From: an uncultured Flavobacteriales bacterium
GTDB taxonomy: Bacteria > Bacteroidota > Bacteroidia > Flavobacteriales_G > Salibacteraceae
Direction: 5' to 3'
Length of the DNA: 62,346 nucleotides
Assembly (NCBI GenBank): GCA_913062955.1
Contig: CAJXZP010000017.1
Location: forward strand, 1 to 62,346
Below the pieces are notes generated by a model, which saw nothing but the letters and a program-made list of their open reading frames with translations, did no database searches and had not been told where the DNA came from. Made by a program: the position numbers and the translations under genes. Of the stretch, positions 2,053 through 52,240 are shown in pieces (the first letter of the stretch is position 1; each line of letters begins with the position of its first letter).

Positions 2053-3042
2053 CTACACCAAGTTATTCTCCAACAAATATTCGGCAATTTGAATGGTATT
2101 TGTTGCGGCCCCTTTTCTTAAGTTATCCGCAACAACCCACATATTTAACGTTTTTGGTTGACTTTCATCTCTACGTAATCTACCTACGAAAACCTCATCT
2201 TTATTATGCGCATATTTAGGCATCGGATAGGTATTGGTTTCTGGACTATCCTGTAAAATCAAACCTTCCGTTTCATGAATGATTTTACGGACATCACTAA
2301 TTTCAAATTCCTGTTTAAATTCTACATTAATCGCTTCCGAATGTCCTCCTTCCAAGGGTACTCGAACAGCTGTAGCTGTAATGGCTAAGGAATTATCGCC
2401 CAAAATTTTGCGGGGTTCATTCACCAATTTCATTTCTTCCTTGGTGTAATCATTTTCTAAAAACACATCACAATGAGGTAAACAGTTTTTATCAATGGAA
2501 TACGGGTAAGCCATTTCACCCTTCACGCCATTCCGTTCATTTTCCATTTGTTGAACAGCCGCTTTTCCGGAACCAGAAATGGACTGATAGGTAGACACAA
2601 TGATTCGTTTAATACCGTATTTCACCTTCAAAGGAGCCAATGCCATCACCAGTTGAATAGTGGAGCAATTGGGATTCGCAATAATCTTATCTTCTTTGGT
2701 TAGTAGATCGGCATTAATTTCAGGAACAATTAATTTGTTTTCTGGATGCATTCTAAAAGCGGAAGAATTGTCGATAACCGTTGTCCCTACGGCTGAAAAT
2801 TGAGGTGCGAACTCCAACGAAATCTCTCCCCCCGCAGAAAACAATGCAATCTCCGGTTGGGCAGCAATAGCGTCTTGCATCGAAACAATCTTTACCTGTT
2901 TACCCCTAAAGGTAATTTCCTTACCCGTAGACTTTTCGGAAGCCACAGGCAACAACACGTCAAATTTCACATTTCGTTCTTCCAATAACTGAAGCATCAC
3001 TCTTCCCACCATTCCGGTAGCTCCTACAACGGCAATTTTCAT
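2053..3042 (-). CDS. asd: Aspartate-semialdehyde dehydrogenase
   Basis: Cytosolic enzyme that reduces aspartyl-4-phosphate to aspartate-4-semialdehyde with NADPH. This is the branch point to lysine/diaminopimelate, threonine and methionine. The 329-residue product starts MKIAVVGATGMVG, the Rossmann NADP-binding glycine loop (residues 1-13), and contains NPNCSTIQ with the catalytic Cys near residue 126. RxPxxxGHS near residue 240 carries the base His. Length is normal for the family. An in-frame start 13 codons upstream is possible, but the ATG at 3042 begins exactly at the Rossmann strand. A one-mismatch -7 box (TATACTTG on the minus strand, 3061-3068) lies 18 bases upstream. It stands alone, convergent with the TPR gene. 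Confidence 0.95.
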   Translation of the reverse strand: MKIAVVGATGMVGRVMLQLLEERNVKFDVLLPVASEKSTGKEITFRGKQVKIVSMQDAIAAQPEIALFSAGGEISLEFAPQFSAVGTTVIDNSSAFRMHPENKLIVPEINADLLTKEDKIIANPNCSTIQLVMALAPLKVKYGIKRIIVSTYQSISGSGKAAVQQMENERNGVKGEMAYPYSIDKNCLPHCDVFLENDYTKEEMKLVNEPRKILGDNSLAITATAVRVPLEGGHSEAINVEFKQEFEISDVRKIIHETEGLILQDSPETNTYPMPKYAHNKDEVFVGRLRRDESQPKTLNMWVVADNLRKGAATNTIQIAEYLLENNLV

Positions 3043-3227
3043 TTTTTTATAAATTTTGTGCAAGTATAACCTTTCTTTCAAGAAATGGAATCTAATTATT
3101 TAGGGTATCATAGCCCTTATAAACAGGTAGGAAAAACAAAATCACCCACCCATTAAAACCTATTCCTATTTATTTCTACATTTATGCAACGGACCTCCAT
3201 TAATATCAGTCTATTATTTCAAGTATC

Positions 3228-39661: not shown

Positions 39662-40933
39662 ATGAATTCACGGTCACTCAAATTTTTTCCTTTTATTATA
39701 CTTTTCGCCCTCCTTTTTATTATCGATTTGTACGTTTATAAAGGTCTTAAAATGCTATTATCGGATATGCAAAACACGGTGTTGCGTAAGACCCTATTAA
39801 TTGGCCACTGGGTAATATTTGCGGCAGTAGTTATTTGGATCGCCTTGGTTTTATTTAATGTCAATACCAATCCTGAATTCAAGAATTACAAAACCACCTA
39901 TTATTTAGTGGGGGTTACCATGCTTTTTTACCTACCGAAAGTGGTGTTTTCGCTATTCATCTTTTCGGATGATATTTTACTTTTATTTAGAAATATCATT
40001 GGTTATTTCACCCCAACCGATACCTCTTCGAGTGGGGAGAATATTTCTCGTTTAAAATTTCTTTACCAATTAGGCATTGGCGCAGCTACCATTCCATTTA
40101 TTGGGACCGCTTATGGAATGATTAAAGGTCGTTACGACTTCGGGGTAAAGAACATTCCGGTAAAGTTACCGAATCTACCCGCCTCTTTCGAAGGGTTGAC
40201 TATGGTACAATTAAGCGATTTGCATCTAGGAAGTTTCTTTAACGATAAGGAACCGGTAGCCAAAGCCTTTCAAATGGTGAAGGATTTGAATCCAGACATC
40301 TTAGTAGTGACAGGAGATTGGGTAAATAATTTTGCGCATGAAGCTGAAGGATGGATTGAAGAATTTAAATCTTTACCCGCCCATATGGCTAAACTCGCTA
40401 TTGTAGGAAACCATGATTATGGCGATTACAGCCAATGGCCGAGTGCAGATAAAAAAAGACAAAATTTTGATCGTTTGTTAGAAATCCACAAAGAAATGGG
40501 CTTTCAATCCTTGATGAATGAAAACGTGGTTTTCGATAAAAATGGCGATAAACTCGCGGTGATTGGAGTAGAGAATTGGGGGGTGAAACCGTTTCCTCAA
40601 CATGGTGATTTAGCGAAAGCAAAACAGGGAACCGAAGGGGTTCCGGTAAAGATTTTATTATCGCATGACCCTTCTCACTTTGAAGAAGTAGTGACTAAAG
40701 GACATCCAGATATTGACTTAACGCTTTCGGGCCATACGCATGGAGCGCAATTTGGAGTCGAATTAGGAAATATTAAATGGAGTCCTGTAAAATACAAATA
40801 CCCACGTTGGGCGGGATTGTATGAGGTCGCACATCAAAAACTGTATGTAAATCGTGGCTTTGGATATTTAGCATTTCCAGGTAGAATTGGGATGCCGCCT
40901 GAGATTACGTATTTTACTTTTAATAAGGGATAG
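39662..40933 (+). CDS. Membrane-anchored metallophosphoesterase
   Basis: 423 residues. Four hydrophobic segments in the first 140 residues (FFPFIILFALLFIIDLYVY onwards), then a calcineurin-like phosphoesterase domain: LSDLHLGSFF (metal-binding D and H), VTGDWVNN, VGNHDYGDY, LSHDPSHFEEV and LSGHTHGAQFG supply all metal ligands. Similar proteins act on nucleotides or lipid-linked pyrophosphates at the membrane. The substrate is not deducible. ATG 39662 is preferred to a slightly longer frame because it follows the -7 box at normal distance. The region immediately downstream carries the hairpin array at 40953. Confidence 0.9.
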   Translation: MNSRSLKFFPFIILFALLFIIDLYVYKGLKMLLSDMQNTVLRKTLLIGHWVIFAAVVIWIALVLFNVNTNPEFKNYKTTYYLVGVTMLFYLPKVVFSLFIFSDDILLLFRNIIGYFTPTDTSSSGENISRLKFLYQLGIGAATIPFIGTAYGMIKGRYDFGVKNIPVKLPNLPASFEGLTMVQLSDLHLGSFFNDKEPVAKAFQMVKDLNPDILVVTGDWVNNFAHEAEGWIEEFKSLPAHMAKLAIVGNHDYGDYSQWPSADKKRQNFDRLLEIHKEMGFQSLMNENVVFDKNGDKLAVIGVENWGVKPFPQHGDLAKAKQGTEGVPVKILLSHDPSHFEEVVTKGHPDIDLTLSGHTHGAQFGVELGNIKWSPVKYKYPRWAGLYEVAHQKLYVNRGFGYLAFPGRIGMPPEITYFTFNKG

Positions 40934-40952
40934 GCTGATTCGTTTGAATACA

Positions 40953-41103
40953 TTCATTGCTACCGCAATGAAAGTTAAATTTACTAAAGGATAACAATTT
41001 GGATAAAGGAATACCTTGCTACCTCAAGGTATTCTAAATTTACTAGAGGGTAGTTCAAAATATAAAGGATGCATTCCTACCGGAATCCATCCTAAATTTA
41101 CTA
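40953..41103 (+). repeat. Array of three hairpin units with constant loop and flank
   Basis: Three units about 57 bases apart. Unit 1: TTCATTGC (40953-40960), loop TACC, GCAATGAA. Unit 2: GAATACCTTG (41009-41018), loop CTACCT, CAAGGTATTC. Unit 3: GGATGCATTCC (41067-41077), loop TACC, GGAATCCATCC with one mismatch. After each 3' arm comes TAAATTTACTA (41035-41045, 41093-41103; in unit 1 TTAAATTTACTA at 40975-40986). Stem sequences are unrelated but pair; loops and 3' flanks are constant. A looser fourth copy may lie at 41161-41196 (GGGATAC / GTATCCC around TTACC, followed by TAAA). The array lies between the phosphoesterase gene and the glyS promoter. Confidence 0.8.
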
Positions 41104-41228
41104 CGTAAATTTTACCTTTCAGTAAAGCGTAAACAAGTCTCCATACCGGGATTTATTGAGGGGATACGATCACTTCTTACCCGGAAAAAGTATCCCTAAA
41201 AAAACCACAGATAGTTGGGGTATCTACC

Positions 41229-41236
41229 TATTTTTG
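41229..41236 (+). promoter_or_regulatory. -7 promoter box of glyS (TATTTTTG)
   Basis: Exact TAnnTTTG match 21 bases before the glyS ATG. It lies downstream of the hairpin array, so the array is not in the glyS leader if this promoter is used. Confidence 0.6.
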
Positions 41237-41257
41237 CAACCTCAAAAAATTAGATAA

Positions 41258-42796
41258 ATGGCAGCACCAAAAGAAGATAGTTTAAAGAAAATCATTGGTC
41301 ATTCTAAGGAATACGGATTTGTATTTCAAAGTAGCGAAATCTATGACGGTCTCAGTGCCGTTTACGATTACGGACAAATGGGCGCAGAATTAAAGCGTAA
41401 CATCAAGGATTATTGGTGGACCGCCATGGTGCAGATGAACGAAAATATTGTGGGACTCGATTCTTCAATTTTCATGCATCCTACTACTTGGAAAGCATCC
41501 GGACATGTAGATGCGTTTAACGATCCGTTGATTGATAACAAGGATTCCAAAAAGCGTTACCGTGCCGATGTACTGATTGAAGAACATGTAGAAAAATACC
41601 GTATCAAAATCAAAAAAGACGTAGCCAAAGGCTTGAAACGTTTTGGAGATGACTTTAATGAGGAAGAGTTTTTAAAAACGAATCCCAATGTAAAACGGAA
41701 CCAAGATAAAATTGACGACATCAACGGACGTTATAAATCGGCTATGGATGCGGATGATTTAGCCGCCATTAAAACGTTGATTGAAGATCTAGGGATTGTA
41801 TGTCCGATTAGCGGGACTAAAAACTGGACGGATGTAAAGCAATTCAATTTGATGTTTGCGACCGAAATTGGTTCGGTAGCTGATTCTGCTAACACCATTT
41901 ATTTACGTCCCGAAACGGCTCAAGGTATTTTTGTGAATTTCTTAAACGTTCAGAAAACGGGCCGAATGAAAATTCCATTTGGAATTGCACAAATTGGTAA
42001 AGCCTTCCGTAACGAAATCGTAGCGCGTCAATTCATTTTTAGAATGCGTGAGTTTGAACAAATGGAAATGCAATTTTTTGTACGTCCAGGAGAAGAAATG
42101 AAATGGTATGAGTACTGGAAAGAACAACGTATTAACTGGCACAAATCTTTAGGGATTCCGCAAGAGAAATACCGTTACCATGATCATATTAAGTTAGCGC
42201 ATTACGCTAATGCAGCCAGTGATATTGAATTTGATTTCCCTATGGGATTCAAAGAATTAGAAGGAATCCACTCGCGTACAGATTTTGATTTGAAACAACA
42301 CGAAAAATTTTCGGGTAAGAAATTACAATATTTTGATCCGGAGATTAACGAAAATTATGTGCCTTACGTGGTAGAGACTTCGGTTGGTTTGGATCGCACA
42401 TTCTTAGCGGTTCTTTCATCGGCTTATACCGAAGAGAAATTAGAAAATGGAACGGAACGTACCGTGTTAAAGTTACCGGCTATGTTAGCGCCATACAAAG
42501 CGGCTATTATGCCATTAACACGGAAAGATGGTTTACCGGAAAAAGCACGTGAAATTTTAAACGACTTGAAATTTGATTTCAACTGTCAATACGATGAGAA
42601 AGATTCGCCCGGAAAACGTTACCGTAGACAAGATGCTATTGGAACACCGTTTTGTATCATGGTGGACCACCAAACATTAGAAGACAACACCGTGACTGTT
42701 CGTGATCGAGATACCATGGAACAAGAACGTGTGGCTATTGATCAATTGGCTACCCTCATTAAAAGGAAGACTGATTTCAGACATTATTTGAGTTAG
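41258..42796 (+). CDS. glyS: Glycyl-tRNA synthetase, dimeric eukaryote-like type
   Basis: Charges tRNA-Gly. 512 residues in a single chain, i.e. the homodimeric class IIa form rather than the alpha2-beta2 E. coli form, as usual for Bacteroidota. Start SLKKIIGHSKEYGFVFQSSEIYDGLSAVYDYGQMGAELKR-type region, FMHPTTWKASGHVDAF, motif 2 FRNEIVARQFIFRMREFEQ, and motif 3 VGLDRTFLAVL. The C-terminal anticodon-binding domain contains YDEKDSPGKRYRRQDAIGTPFC. It ends with a bidirectional terminator 94 bases later. No T-box-like leader is seen. Confidence 0.97.
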   Translation: MAAPKEDSLKKIIGHSKEYGFVFQSSEIYDGLSAVYDYGQMGAELKRNIKDYWWTAMVQMNENIVGLDSSIFMHPTTWKASGHVDAFNDPLIDNKDSKKRYRADVLIEEHVEKYRIKIKKDVAKGLKRFGDDFNEEEFLKTNPNVKRNQDKIDDINGRYKSAMDADDLAAIKTLIEDLGIVCPISGTKNWTDVKQFNLMFATEIGSVADSANTIYLRPETAQGIFVNFLNVQKTGRMKIPFGIAQIGKAFRNEIVARQFIFRMREFEQMEMQFFVRPGEEMKWYEYWKEQRINWHKSLGIPQEKYRYHDHIKLAHYANAASDIEFDFPMGFKELEGIHSRTDFDLKQHEKFSGKKLQYFDPEINENYVPYVVETSVGLDRTFLAVLSSAYTEEKLENGTERTVLKLPAMLAPYKAAIMPLTRKDGLPEKAREILNDLKFDFNCQYDEKDSPGKRYRRQDAIGTPFCIMVDHQTLEDNTVTVRDRDTMEQERVAIDQLATLIKRKTDFRHYLS

Positions 42797-42932: not shown

Positions 42933-45900
42933 TTATTTTTTAATAAAGGTCTTCTTTAATACTCCCTTTTTTCCTATTAAGTCTAAATGATAAATTCCTG
43001 ACGCTAAACTTTCCACATTCACCTTATCAAAATTCGAGGTTACTGTTTTAACTCGTTTACCCGAAAAATCAAAAATTTGAATCTCATAGATTACAAAATT
43101 ATTGCTTACAATTGTGAGTTCAAAAGAGGTCGGATTAGGGTAAATAGTCACATCCCCAACTATATTTTCCATAATTCCAACATTGATAAACGAGAAACAT
43201 TCGGAAGTATCTACACATCCATTTTGAGAAACTTCAACTGCGTAATCTCCACTCAGGGTTACTACAAACAATGCGTTTGTCTCGTTTGGAATGGAATTGT
43301 TTGTATTGCAATCTATCCATTGAAAGGATGCGTTGGTGGCTTGAGCTGTTAATTTTAAATCCTGCTTTACCATGCTCGTATCCACATTATTAATTGTCAA
43401 ATTAAGATGAATAATACTATCACATCCGACACTATTTATATGCGTATCTACCAGAGTGTTGTTACTAGAATAGTAGGTAATGCCATTAATCCAAGTTAGA
43501 CTATCACACGCAGTTATCACATCCACCCTTGAGTTGGAATGTACTATGGTCAAATCTAGTGTGACAATACTATCGCAACCTACAGAGTTTGGTATTGTAT
43601 GAATAGCCACATTATTACTTGTGTTATAAGTAAACCCATTAATCCAGGTATAACTATCACAAGCGGTTAATACATCAACCCCATTGGAAGCGTTTAGTAT
43701 GGTGAGGTTTAACCAAACAATACTATCACAACCAACAGCATTTACTAGTGTATCATTAATATTAGTGGTACTGGAATAGTAGGTAATGCCATTTATCCAA
43801 GTTAAGCTATCACAGGTTACTATTGAATCAACAAAAAGGGTAAATGGCAAAATGGTTAAATTTAAAGCAACTATACTATCACAACCTAAAGAATTTATCA
43901 AGGTGTCTTTTGCCAAGGTATTACTTGCGTTATAAGTAATTCCATCAATCCAAGTATAACTATCACAGCCCACAATTGAATCCGTACCATATGACGTATA
44001 ATTAACCACTAAATTTAACGCAACAACGCTATCACATCCTCCATTGCTTATTAATGTATCTACCACGGTGTTAATACTAGAATAATAAGTAATTCCGTTA
44101 ACCCATGTCAGGCTATCGCAAACTACAATATTGTCTACGTATATATTAGAATCAAAAATGGTTAACTCCAAGAGTACTATGGTATCACATCCATTTAGGT
44201 TGATTAAGGTGTCTGTTGCCGTATTATTACTCGAATAGTAGGTAACCCCGTTACGCCATGTTACGCTATTGCAACTTGAAATTGTTTCAACAATTGGATA
44301 ATAACCAATGGTTAACTTCAATTCAATGATACTATCACACCCTTCTGTATTGGTAAAGGTAGCAGTATCGATATAATTACTTGAGGAATATGTCTGCCCA
44401 TTAATCCAAGTATAACTAGCGCAGGCATATTTAATATCCTCTTGTAAATTAACGCATGACTCACAAGAGCCAACTTCTCTTATCTGTTTTAAGGTCCTAT
44501 TCTGGGCAGAAGAATTATCTAATGGATTACCCATGTTTAATACAGGAGAGGGGTACAAAGGCATTAACGTCATCGTACTTCCTCCATTATTTTTTAGGGT
44601 ATCTAAATTTAATGTGATTGAATCTACACCAATTTGATCCGAATTTACGGTATCAATCAAAGCAGTATCTGAGAAAATATTATTCCCTCCTGAAACCAAT
44701 CTAGGAATATTATTACGAAATATATTTATTGAATCGCTCGATACAAAAATTGAACTAGAAGGATTTATTTCAGGGTTATGCGAATAAATATTCCCTCCAA
44801 AACTATGGGCATTATTAAAAGCAAATGTTGAGTTAACTACATCCATGTATGATTGAAGTGATCCGGAGGACTTCGTATAAATCCCACCACCAATACCTGT
44901 ACTATTTTCATTTATTGTGGATTTCAATATTTCAATTTGCACTTTTGAATCATAATACGGCCCAAACCATCCTGAATAGGCCAAGGGAATTCCAACATAG
45001 AACCCACCTCCTTTATCACCAGAAATATTTCTGTTTATAGTAGATGAACGAACTTTTAATTCACTCAACCCAATTTGGTTATAACTAGAAGATGTAACAT
45101 ATACCCCACCTCCTGAGCCATTTAATGCAGTGTTTGAAGTAACATTACTATTTAATATTGAAACTCTAGAAGTGTCACCATCCTGGTATGATAATGAAAT
45201 AACGTAAATCCCCCCTCCATCACCTAATGCCATGTTATTCTTGACCATGGAACGTTCTACATTCACCTCTGATTTAATAGGGTTATTACTATTTGGGCAT
45301 CGGGAGTAAATACCTCCTCCATTTGTTATTGCATAATTGGAATCAATAATTGAATTTAGAACATTTACTATTGAAAATTCACCGGAGGAAACACTGTGAC
45401 TGGTGCCGGAGTAAATCCCCCCACCAAGTTTAGAACTGTTTCCCATAATAGTAGAGTTGTTTAGATTCACCCAAGAAGAAACCGTTGAATGAGAAGCAAT
45501 CCCTCCTCCCTCTCCATTGCCACTACTTGTATTATACTTAATATAAGACGATTCTACATCGATTTCGGAATCGATTGCTGATACAAACACACCTCCTCCA
45601 CTACCTCCTGCAGAATTCTCCGAAATGGTTGAACTATCAATGTAAATTTCCGATTTGTTTCCAGAAGAGCAAATTCCCCCTCCCCCATTTGCAATTGACT
45701 CATTTCCGTTTATTTGGGAATTAAGCACCCTTATTTTCACGGAATTAAATCCAGGGTTATTATTCGCAAAACAGATTATTCCTCCACCCATTGTACCCGC
45801 CTCATTGGAATCGATAATCGAGTTCACTATTTGAACCTCCATGTTACTAGTATCACCATTAGCAAATGAGGAACAATAAACCCCACCTCCTTCATATAAA

Positions 45901-46766
45901 CTAGTATTTTTAAATATGTTAGAATTTAAAAAACTAACAAAAGACCTAGCTTTTAAATTAGTAGATTTTGCAATACAGAAAATGCCTCCACCACTGGCCG
46001 AGCTATTCCATCTTACTTCAGAGTTTTTTACGATAACTGATGCAAATGCAGAAGGTAAGGAGTAGCTAGTATTTGGAGCATTACAGTAAACTCCACCTCC
46101 TTCCATTGATGCACTATTACCACTTATTAATGAGCTGTCAATAAAAACATACGTTGTAATATCTGTACTATCTGAACTTCCACAACAAGTACCTTTACAA
46201 TAAATCCCACCACCTTTTCCATTAGTAGCACTATTATTCACAATTTCAGAATTGAAAACTTCCACCGCAATTGATTTACTATTGGCTGAACCACCCCCTG
46301 CATGAGCATAAATAGCCCCACCAATTGTTGCAACATTATTCCGAATAACCGAATTTCTAACAAACAAGGTGTCAGAACTACGAAACTCAATAGCCCCACC
46401 TCCACCATTTGTTGAATAACCATTTACCATGACCAAAGAGTCTATGACCACATTAGACGTATTAGATATTCTAAATAATGTGGTTGCTCCCCCACCAGAT
46501 AAATACAAGGTATCACTTGAAGAATATAACCCTATAATTGAAAGAGATTTACTGAAAATCAATGGAGAAGCTAAAACAATATTTGGACTCCCAATGGCGA
46601 TTAAACTTGGACTAAAACGAATGGTATCACCGTTATTCGCTAAAGTAATTTTGGACCTTAAAGAACCAAATCCACTATTACTTGTAGATGTAACCGTCCA
46701 CACGGTAGCATACGAATACGTTGAATACGTAAATAACAAAAGGACAAGAAGGATTAGCTTTCTCAT
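42933..46766 (-). CDS. Giant secreted beta-helix protein with seven 51-residue repeats and T9SS sorting domain
   Basis: 1277 residues. Signal peptide (MRKLILLVLLLFTYSTYSYA). About 20-770: parallel beta-helix of the choice-of-anchor/Pmp type, with recurring GGGIY/GGGVYC and NSxIxxN motifs (about 20 turns). About 780-1140: seven tandem repeats (CDSxTWxNGxTYYSSNN ... GCDSIVxLNLTI, two Cys each). About 1140-1195: an Ig-like/PKD segment. C-terminus: type A T9SS sorting domain (IYPNPTSFELTIVSNN, SLASGIYHLDL), so the protein is exported by T9SS and anchored to or shed from the surface. Probably an adhesin or surface-layer component. It is the last gene on its transcript, ended by the terminator at 42891. 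Confidence 0.9.
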   Translation of the reverse strand: MRKLILLVLLLFTYSTYSYATVWTVTSTSNSGFGSLRSKITLANNGDTIRFSPSLIAIGSPNIVLASPLIFSKSLSIIGLYSSSDTLYLSGGGATTLFRISNTSNVVIDSLVMVNGYSTNGGGGAIEFRSSDTLFVRNSVIRNNVATIGGAIYAHAGGGSANSKSIAVEVFNSEIVNNSATNGKGGGIYCKGTCCGSSDSTDITTYVFIDSSLISGNSASMEGGGVYCNAPNTSYSLPSAFASVIVKNSEVRWNSSASGGGIFCIAKSTNLKARSFVSFLNSNIFKNTSLYEGGGVYCSSFANGDTSNMEVQIVNSIIDSNEAGTMGGGIICFANNNPGFNSVKIRVLNSQINGNESIANGGGGICSSGNKSEIYIDSSTISENSAGGSGGGVFVSAIDSEIDVESSYIKYNTSSGNGEGGGIASHSTVSSWVNLNNSTIMGNSSKLGGGIYSGTSHSVSSGEFSIVNVLNSIIDSNYAITNGGGIYSRCPNSNNPIKSEVNVERSMVKNNMALGDGGGIYVISLSYQDGDTSRVSILNSNVTSNTALNGSGGGVYVTSSSYNQIGLSELKVRSSTINRNISGDKGGGFYVGIPLAYSGWFGPYYDSKVQIEILKSTINENSTGIGGGIYTKSSGSLQSYMDVVNSTFAFNNAHSFGGNIYSHNPEINPSSSIFVSSDSINIFRNNIPRLVSGGNNIFSDTALIDTVNSDQIGVDSITLNLDTLKNNGGSTMTLMPLYPSPVLNMGNPLDNSSAQNRTLKQIREVGSCESCVNLQEDIKYACASYTWINGQTYSSSNYIDTATFTNTEGCDSIIELKLTIGYYPIVETISSCNSVTWRNGVTYYSSNNTATDTLINLNGCDTIVLLELTIFDSNIYVDNIVVCDSLTWVNGITYYSSINTVVDTLISNGGCDSVVALNLVVNYTSYGTDSIVGCDSYTWIDGITYNASNTLAKDTLINSLGCDSIVALNLTILPFTLFVDSIVTCDSLTWINGITYYSSTTNINDTLVNAVGCDSIVWLNLTILNASNGVDVLTACDSYTWINGFTYNTSNNVAIHTIPNSVGCDSIVTLDLTIVHSNSRVDVITACDSLTWINGITYYSSNNTLVDTHINSVGCDSIIHLNLTINNVDTSMVKQDLKLTAQATNASFQWIDCNTNNSIPNETNALFVVTLSGDYAVEVSQNGCVDTSECFSFINVGIMENIVGDVTIYPNPTSFELTIVSNNFVIYEIQIFDFSGKRVKTVTSNFDKVNVESLASGIYHLDLIGKKGVLKKTFIKK
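43358..44423 (-). repeat. Seven tandem 51-residue coding repeats
   Basis: Within the T9SS gene. Each unit is about 150-153 bases and begins with Cys in a CxSxTW motif. The first Cys codon is at 44421-44423 and the seventh at 43506-43508, i.e. 305 codons for six units. Units 3, 5 and 7 share CDSLTWxNGITYYSS, while 4 and 6 share CDSYTWI, an alternation that hints at expansion by duplicating pairs of units. Confidence 0.85.
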
Positions 46767-51854: not shown

Positions 51855-52006
51855 ATTCCCCCTTGGCGGAGGGGGAAGGAATTCTGACAACGGAAGAATT
51901 TAGGGGGATTGACTTTTGAGTTTTTCAAGAATCTATCTATTACATTAACAAATCAATCCCCCGGAATCTCACTTCGATCGATTCGCCCCCTCCGCCAAGG
52001 GGGAAT
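51855..52006. repeat. Inverted-repeat element, copy 1
   Basis: Perfect 21-bp outer inverted repeat (51855-51875 and 51986-52006, ATTCCCCCTTGGCGGAGGGGG and its complement) and an inner repeat GGGGGATTGA / TCAATCCCCC (51903-51912 and 51953-51962). In RNA or single-stranded DNA it would fold as one long hairpin of about 150 bases with a 40-base AT-rich loop. It resembles a miniature inverted-repeat element, but no target-site duplication is obvious. Confidence 0.8.
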
Positions 52007-52086
52007 TCCTGGGTTTTATACTCTTGGTGAAGGATTCAAAATATACGGTGCGAAACGCTTGAATTTAGAGTGAATTTGCAAATAAT

Positions 52087-52240
52087 GCCCCCCCTTGGAG
52101 GAGGGGAAGGGAATTCTGACAGCGGAAGAATTTAGGGGGATTGACTTTTGGTTTTTTCAAGAATCTATACAATACATTAACAAATCAATCCCCCAGAATC
52201 TCACTCCGTTCGATTCGCCCCCTTCGCCAAGGGGGAATTC
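52087..52240. repeat. Inverted-repeat element, copy 2
   Basis: Direct-orientation second copy of the 51855 element. The core is nearly identical, with TTTAGGGGGATTGACTTTTG at 52131-52150, ACATTAACAAATCAATCCCC and CGCCAAGGGGGAATTCCTG. The outer left arm has diverged (CCCCCCCTTGGAGGAGGGG), so the outer palindrome is imperfect while the inner one is kept. Confidence 0.75.

What the first reader, a model, noticed from the sequence alone, without database searches (positions are those of the whole stretch)
40953..41196. Array of hairpins with unrelated stems, constant TACC loop and constant TAAATTTACTA flank
Seen: three units at about 57-base spacing. Their stems are completely different (TTCATTGC, GAATACCTTG, GGATGCATTCC) but each is complementary to its partner. 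The loop contains TACC in all three, and each 3' arm is followed by TAAATTTACTA. Non-identical stems that still pair mean structure, not sequence, is kept. A looser fourth unit may follow at 41161. Known: REP/RAYT elements, attC sites and structured RNAs conserve structure in this way. Inference: a REP-like or RNA-binding element family, possibly a 3' UTR of the phosphoesterase gene, or an unknown mobile hairpin. No RAYT transposase lies in this window.
Basis: seen in the sequence. Interest (0 to 1): 0.65.

Follow-up and report, generated by a model that had tools for sequence, protein, structure and literature searches.

The report
Genus-specific two-hairpin repeat, tripled
A Flavobacteriales genome carries, between two ordinary genes, three side-by-side copies of a short hairpin repeat that turns up at dozens of places in its genus and keeps its folded shape while its letters change, which looks like a previously undescribed relative of the known bacterial REP repeats.

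Summary
Three units (40949, 41008, 41066; spacing 59 and 58) each have a TACC-looped hairpin with compensatory stem changes, followed by an identical TAAATTTACTA. The proposed fourth unit is not supported. TAAATTTACTA is the 5' arm of a second hairpin, complete only in unit 3. Covariance models show that unit 3 belongs to a two-hairpin module. At E<=0.05 there are 11 copies in this genome, 16 in one congener and 1 in another. There are none in 32 other genomes of the family. Sixteen non-window copies align without gaps and covary strongly: 64 cells changed on both sides, against 23 in shuffles. A model built without any window sequence finds unit 3 at E=1.7e-4 across the genome. The strong copies are mostly intergenic, lie in mixed orientations, and some form inverted pairs inside elements ending TCAATCCCCCT...AGGGGGATTGA. 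The best reading is a REP/REPIN-like non-autonomous DNA repeat recognised by structure, here amplified in tandem. Defining REP features fail: there is no GTAG foot, no linked RAYT and copy number is low. It is filed as a new variant that works like REPs, not as a REP. No Rfam family matches. The mobilising enzyme and any host role are unknown.

The parts
40949..40986 (+). Unit 1: hp1 (stem 8 bp plus 2 outer pairs, loop TACC 40961-40964) followed by TAAATTTACTA (40976-40986); hp2 3' arm absent
   Evidence: family model R3 18.4 bits
41008..41045 (+). Unit 2: hp1 (10 Watson-Crick pairs, TACC at 41020-41023) followed by TAAATTTACTA (41035-41045); hp2 3' arm absent
41066..41115 (+). Unit 3: complete two-hairpin module; hp1 41066-41093 (loop TACC 41078-41081, one C.C mismatch), hp2 arms 41094-41101 and 41105-41112 (triloop TAC)
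   Evidence: R3, built without window sequence, 42.7 bits, E 1.7e-4 genome-wide, 2.7e-6 in the window; DNA fold z -6.3 and -8.5 on the two strands
40987..41007 (+). Spacer between units 1 and 2; shares AGGRTAR..ATAAAGG with the spacer after unit 2, so the units are tandem duplicates
41046..41065 (+). Spacer between units 2 and 3
41161..41196 (+).
   Evidence: DNA fold z +0.2; no R3 match in window scan
39665..40933 (+). Upstream gene: membrane metallophosphoesterase-like protein (start codon approximate)
   Evidence: 75% identical orthologue with the same neighbour in G001
41258..42796 (+). Downstream gene: glycyl-tRNA synthetase (glyS)
   Evidence: 92% identical orthologue in G001

Best explanation
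The array is three diverged direct tandem copies of a genus-restricted, low-copy, two-hairpin extragenic repeat. The full module is 50 nt. Hp1 has about 10 bp, usually with one unpaired purine in the 5' arm, and a C(TACC)G loop (variants TATC, TGTC, TTCC). An AT-rich 8-bp triloop hairpin, hp2, follows at once. SHOWN: the module is dispersed in intergenic DNA of three congeneric genomes, occurs singly, in direct tandem (59 nt) and in inverted pairs inside TIR-bounded elements of about 180-215 bp, and keeps both stems by compensatory change. INFERRED: it works as REP/REPIN and MITE repeats do. The hairpins form in single-stranded DNA and are recognised by shape plus loop and unpaired base by a trans-acting enzyme, so the stem sequence can drift while pairing is kept. 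The tandem array here arose after insertion, by slippage or unequal exchange over a 58/59-bp unit; units 1 and 2 lost the hp2 3' arm. Any effect on the phosphoesterase or glyS transcripts would be secondary.
For: R1, built only from the three window units, had four of its five best non-window hits in G002, plus one in G000 C18. Inspection showed an hp2 3' arm there that R1 did not contain. R2 and R3: 11 hits in G000, 1 in G001 and 16 in G002 at E<=0.05, 0 in 32 other genomes of the family. Sixteen non-window copies align ungapped: 88.2% of cells paired against 68.5% shuffled and 32-57% slid; 64 both-side changes against 23; covariation 0.58 against 0.22. R3 without window rows finds unit 3 at E 1.7e-4. 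Copies are mostly intergenic in tandem, convergent and divergent gene contexts. Direct tandem at 59 nt in G002 C20. Inverted second modules about 10 nt away at G002 C213, C161, C210, C52 and C51. TIR TCAATCCCCCT: 29 matches against 1 in the reversed control, with inverted pairs spanning 132-216 bp. G001 has the same gene pair but a 132-nt gap with no array.
Against: No transposase was tied to the module: RAYT/IS200-like genes in the three genomes are flanked by other repeats, and R3 finds nothing there above noise. Copy number is low and copies are diverse, unlike recent REP bursts. No clear target-site duplication was seen in the TIR elements. The array has neither the TIR nor an inverted partner module. 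G-U pairs outnumber A-C mismatches 11 to 4 on the + strand, a weak hint of RNA-level constraint, but rows are related. Part of the search chain began with the window units, so independence is good but not complete.
Confidence: 0.66

Rival explanations
1. A cis-acting RNA element family: the paired hairpins act in transcripts, for example as 3' end protection, termination or a protein-binding site with a C(UACC)G loop. The window array would be the 3' UTR of the phosphoesterase mRNA.
For: Strong structural covariation; G-U pairs outnumber A-C mismatches 11 to 4; the array lies directly after the phosphoesterase stop codon; + strand RNA fold z -5.0 against -2.8 for the - strand.
Against: G001 keeps the gene pair without the array. 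Copies sit next to unrelated genes in either orientation and also between divergent genes (G002 C20). Some lie as inverted pairs inside TIR elements. No Rfam match.
Confidence: 0.17
2. Relict palindromes without function: old tandem and dispersed repeats whose stems are kept paired by templated correction of quasi-palindromes during replication (known mutational process, from own knowledge), not by selection.
For: Explains compensated stems without any protein; low copy number; hp2 decay in units 1 and 2.
Against: Does not explain the conserved loop C-T..C-G over 16 diverse copies, the recurrent unpaired 5'-arm base, or the perfect 11-mer retained in units 1 and 2 where it no longer pairs.
Confidence: 0.15
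3. Chance hairpins with a coincidental common flank.
For: Three hairpins of this quality occur in 17 of 3000 dinucleotide shuffles.
Against: Common register, loop, 11-mer and spacing; an independent model hit at E 1.7e-4; genus-wide family.
Confidence: 0.01

Closest known systems
GTAG-class REPs and their inverted doublets (REPIN/BIME), served by TnpA_REP/RAYT (PMC8266576, PMC3116915, PMC3733652)
   Same: Short extragenic imperfect palindromes with a small loop and an unpaired base in the stem; stems vary with complementarity kept; singles, inverted doublets and tandem clusters; any gene orientation.
   Different: No unpaired GTAG at the foot (the nearest GTAG is in the loop of the complementary strand); an added second AT-rich hairpin; about 1-16 confident copies per genome; no RAYT flanked by the module.
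MITEs (TIR-bounded miniature elements)
   Same: Several module pairs sit inside 132-216-bp non-coding elements with inverted ends TCAATCCCCCT/AGGGGGATTGA.
   Different: The window array and other copies have no such TIR; TIR elements also exist without the module; no target duplication seen.
Repeats of Bacteroidetes TnpA_REP subclass 2.6 ('atypical secondary structures', PMC6006769)
   Same: Bacteroidetes; multi-hairpin atypical structures said to have copies elsewhere in the genome; this genome has one Y1 gene of that motif type (NHFH, YIHNNP).
   Different: That gene's flanks here are a different direct repeat and carry no module.
attC sites of integrons
   Same: Structure kept over sequence, extrahelical base.
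   Different: No cassette ORFs between units, spacing 58-59 nt; recombination core sites and integron integrase were not tested for.

Membership tests
REP (GTAG class) | Unpaired GTAG (or CGTC) tetranucleotide at one foot of the palindrome | tested here: not met
   No conserved GTAG/CGTC at the foot in the 19 aligned rows; conserved letters are the loop C(TACC)G and hp2
REP (GTAG class) | Imperfect palindrome with unpaired base, extragenic, dispersed | tested here: met
   One unpaired 5'-arm base in most copies; mostly intergenic
REP (GTAG class) | High copy number of near-identical units | tested here: not met
   11, 1 and 16 copies at E<=0.05, diverse stems; only the top candidates were scored, so these are lower bounds
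REP/REPIN | Cognate RAYT (Y1 transposase) flanked by the repeat | tested here: not met
   One Y1 gene each in G000, G001 and G002; none with the module within the 1.5 kb held on either side; assemblies of G000 and G002 incomplete
REPIN/BIME | Two units in inverted orientation at short distance | tested here: inconclusive
   Met by five G002 loci, not by the window array, which is a direct tandem
MITE | Terminal inverted repeats and target-site duplication | tested here: inconclusive
   TIR shown for a subset in G002 and G000 C97; no duplication seen; window array has no TIR
Rfam RNA family | Match at gathering score | tested here: not met
   None in window 40500-41400 (laxer threshold) or in eight family loci apart from RNase P next to one copy
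attC | Cassette ORFs between sites | tested here: not met
   Units 58-59 nt apart with no ORF
attC | Integrase core sites and integron integrase | not tested
   No integrase search was run

The most novel reading that the evidence does not exclude
A new class of structure-recognised repeat whose recognition code is the C(TACC)G loop, the unpaired purine and the following hp2 rather than a foot tetranucleotide. It would be served in this Flavobacteriales genus by an enzyme that is not a RAYT flanked by its own repeat, or by a host hairpin-binding protein.
Probability: 0.2. Interest if true: 0.6.

Novelty: new variant of a known kind. Interest (0 to 1): 0.42.

Why it matters
REP-like repeats in Bacteroidota are poorly described, and their transposase subclass 2.6 is known only to have 'atypical' flanking structures. 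This gives a defined two-hairpin consensus with strong covariation and a usable covariance model in a genus where copies can be compared. It makes two questions testable: what keeps hairpin stems paired while their letters drift, and what enzyme, if any, reads the loop.

Tried and rejected
Exact pattern CTACC-N(9-12)-CTAAATTTACTA in 60 relatives: only the window. DNA similarity of the region in its own genome and genus: only itself. Pattern for hp1 plus hp2 in 84,980 species genomes: 12 loci, of which only the two G002 loci are real two-hairpin modules; the other ten folded without a proper hp1 and are taken as chance. Survey of 4-nt loops among non-coding hairpins in 462 kb of G000 and 400 kb of G002: TACC loops not enriched, so this is not an abundant repeat. 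RAYT flanks: no module. Rfam: nothing. tRNA or terminator reading: no tRNA nearby; one weak terminator-like site, expected 0.4 by chance. Literature strings: no relevant paper.

Full report
WHAT IS THERE. Between a metallophosphoesterase-like gene (stop at 40933) and glyS (start at 41258) lie three units at 40949, 41008 and 41066. In one ungapped register, columns 1-12 pair with 17-28 around TACC. Across the three units five pairs change on both sides, and 89% of cells are paired against 70% in shuffles; sliding the partner by one column drops this to 39-42%. The 11-mer TAAATTTACTA is exact in all three. Loop plus 11-mer is invariant in 16 of 16 columns, the rest in 8 of 22 (Fisher p = 3e-5, with the caveat that the classes were chosen after looking).

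A SECOND HAIRPIN. After unit 3 the sequence TAAATTTAC-TAC-GTAAATTTT is a second hairpin. Units 1 and 2 keep its 5' arm but not its 3' arm. This was noticed only through relatives. A covariance model R1, made from the three window units up to TAAATTTACTA, gave weak matches in the congener G002 and in the window's own genome. When those were read, most had the 3' arm as well, which R1 could not have selected for.

THE FAMILY. Models R2 (eight copies) and R3 (sixteen copies, none from the window) define a 50-nt module. In 35 genomes of the family, R3 at E<=0.05 gives 11 matches in G000, 1 in G001, 16 in G002, and none in the 32 genomes of other genera. Only the best 150 first-look candidates per genome were scored, so copy numbers are lower bounds. 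R3 finds window unit 3 at 42.7 bits, E = 1.7e-4 for the genome, well above every other place in the window. The sixteen non-window copies align without a gap. Their two stems are 88% paired, with 64 cells changed on both sides against 23 in shuffles, and covariation 0.58 against 0.22. The closing C-G of hp1 never varies in these sixteen; the loop is TACC or a one-letter variant in nearly all. In most copies a single purine, 3-6 pairs below the loop, is left unpaired in the 5' arm. G002 corresponds to a record named 'uncultured Flavobacteriales bacterium SRR3933268_bin.10', so the window is inferred to be Flavobacteriales.

ARRANGEMENTS. The strong copies are mostly intergenic, between genes in tandem, convergent or divergent order; a few fall in doubtful or short predicted frames. 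Besides singles there is another direct tandem at exactly 59 nt in G002 C20 and a looser pair in G000 C9. In G002 five copies have a second module about 10 nt away in the opposite orientation, meeting at a CTCCCTCC...AAGGGAG palindrome. Several of these sit in elements of 179-216 bp that begin TCAATCCCCCT and end AGGGGGATTGA. That 11-mer occurs 29 times in the three genomes, against once for its reversed control. Such TIR elements also occur without the module, including two relatives in this window at 51855-52240, so module and TIR element are associated but separable.

THE LOCUS IN A CONGENER. G001 has the same two genes side by side (75% and 92% identical proteins) with a gap of only 132 nt and no array. 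The array is therefore not an obligatory part of either gene's expression. Direction of change (gain in G000 or loss in G001) is not shown.

HOW IT PROBABLY WORKS. Shown: dispersed, extragenic, structure conserved over sequence, loop and unpaired base conserved, singles, tandems and inverted pairs. Inferred: as for REPs and TnpA_REP (PMC8266576), where loop, stem irregularity and foot contribute to recognition of single-stranded hairpins, an enzyme reads the shape plus a few letters, so stems drift under a pairing constraint. The tandem in the window would then be a later local amplification. Against this, no enzyme is linked: each of the three genomes has one detectable Y1 gene, and none carries the module in its flanks.

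COMPARISON. REPs and REPINs share most organisation, including tandem clusters (PMC3116915) and stem variation. The defining GTAG or CGTC foot (PMC3733652) was tested and is absent, and RAYT linkage was tested and is absent. It therefore works like a REP but is not filed as one. The nearest literature lead is subclass 2.6 of TnpA_REP in Bacteroidetes, reported to be flanked by atypical secondary structures with copies elsewhere (PMC6006769). The G000 Y1 gene has its motifs, but its flanks are a different repeat.

LIMITS. G000 and G002 are draft assemblies. The search chain began with window units, so R3 is not wholly independent, though its negative result in 32 genomes is a strong control. 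Strand choice (RNA or DNA) is open: G-U pairs outnumber A-C mismatches 11 to 4 in related rows. Why units 1 and 2 keep a perfect half of hp2 is unexplained.

Noticed in passing
window 51855-52240: Two tandem copies, about 230 bp apart, of a composite repeat with CCCCCTTGGCGGAGGGGG hairpins and AGGGGGATTGA/TCAATCCCCC ends, the same ends as the TIR elements that carry the module in G002.
   Followed up: partly
L183 about 3000-3190 and L184 about 2635-2860 (G000 C1:73100, C92:4250): A minisatellite of GGAAGTCGGGAGACGGAAGACGG-like units lies directly upstream of two module copies.
   Followed up: no
window 42933-46766 (-): A 1277-residue secreted-type protein with beta-helix-like repeats followed by CDSYTWINGxTYxSSN repeats and a C-terminal sorting-like domain.
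   Followed up: no
window 41229-41238: TATTTTTGCA before glyS is shared with G001 and resembles a Bacteroidota -7 promoter box.
   Followed up: no
L092 about 1101-1230 and 1993-2108 (G000 C52): The only Y1 transposase gene found in this genome is flanked by two direct copies of a TTGCCAAAT...TTTTTCAATTCTGTTTGCAAAACAGGATTAGAAAACCTT...ATGGCAACTG repeat, possibly its own atypical REP.
   Followed up: partly
G002 C64:7865 region (L196 about 2840-2980): One module copy is enclosed by a longer inverted repeat, AATTGAACTATC...GATAGTTCAATT.
   Followed up: no
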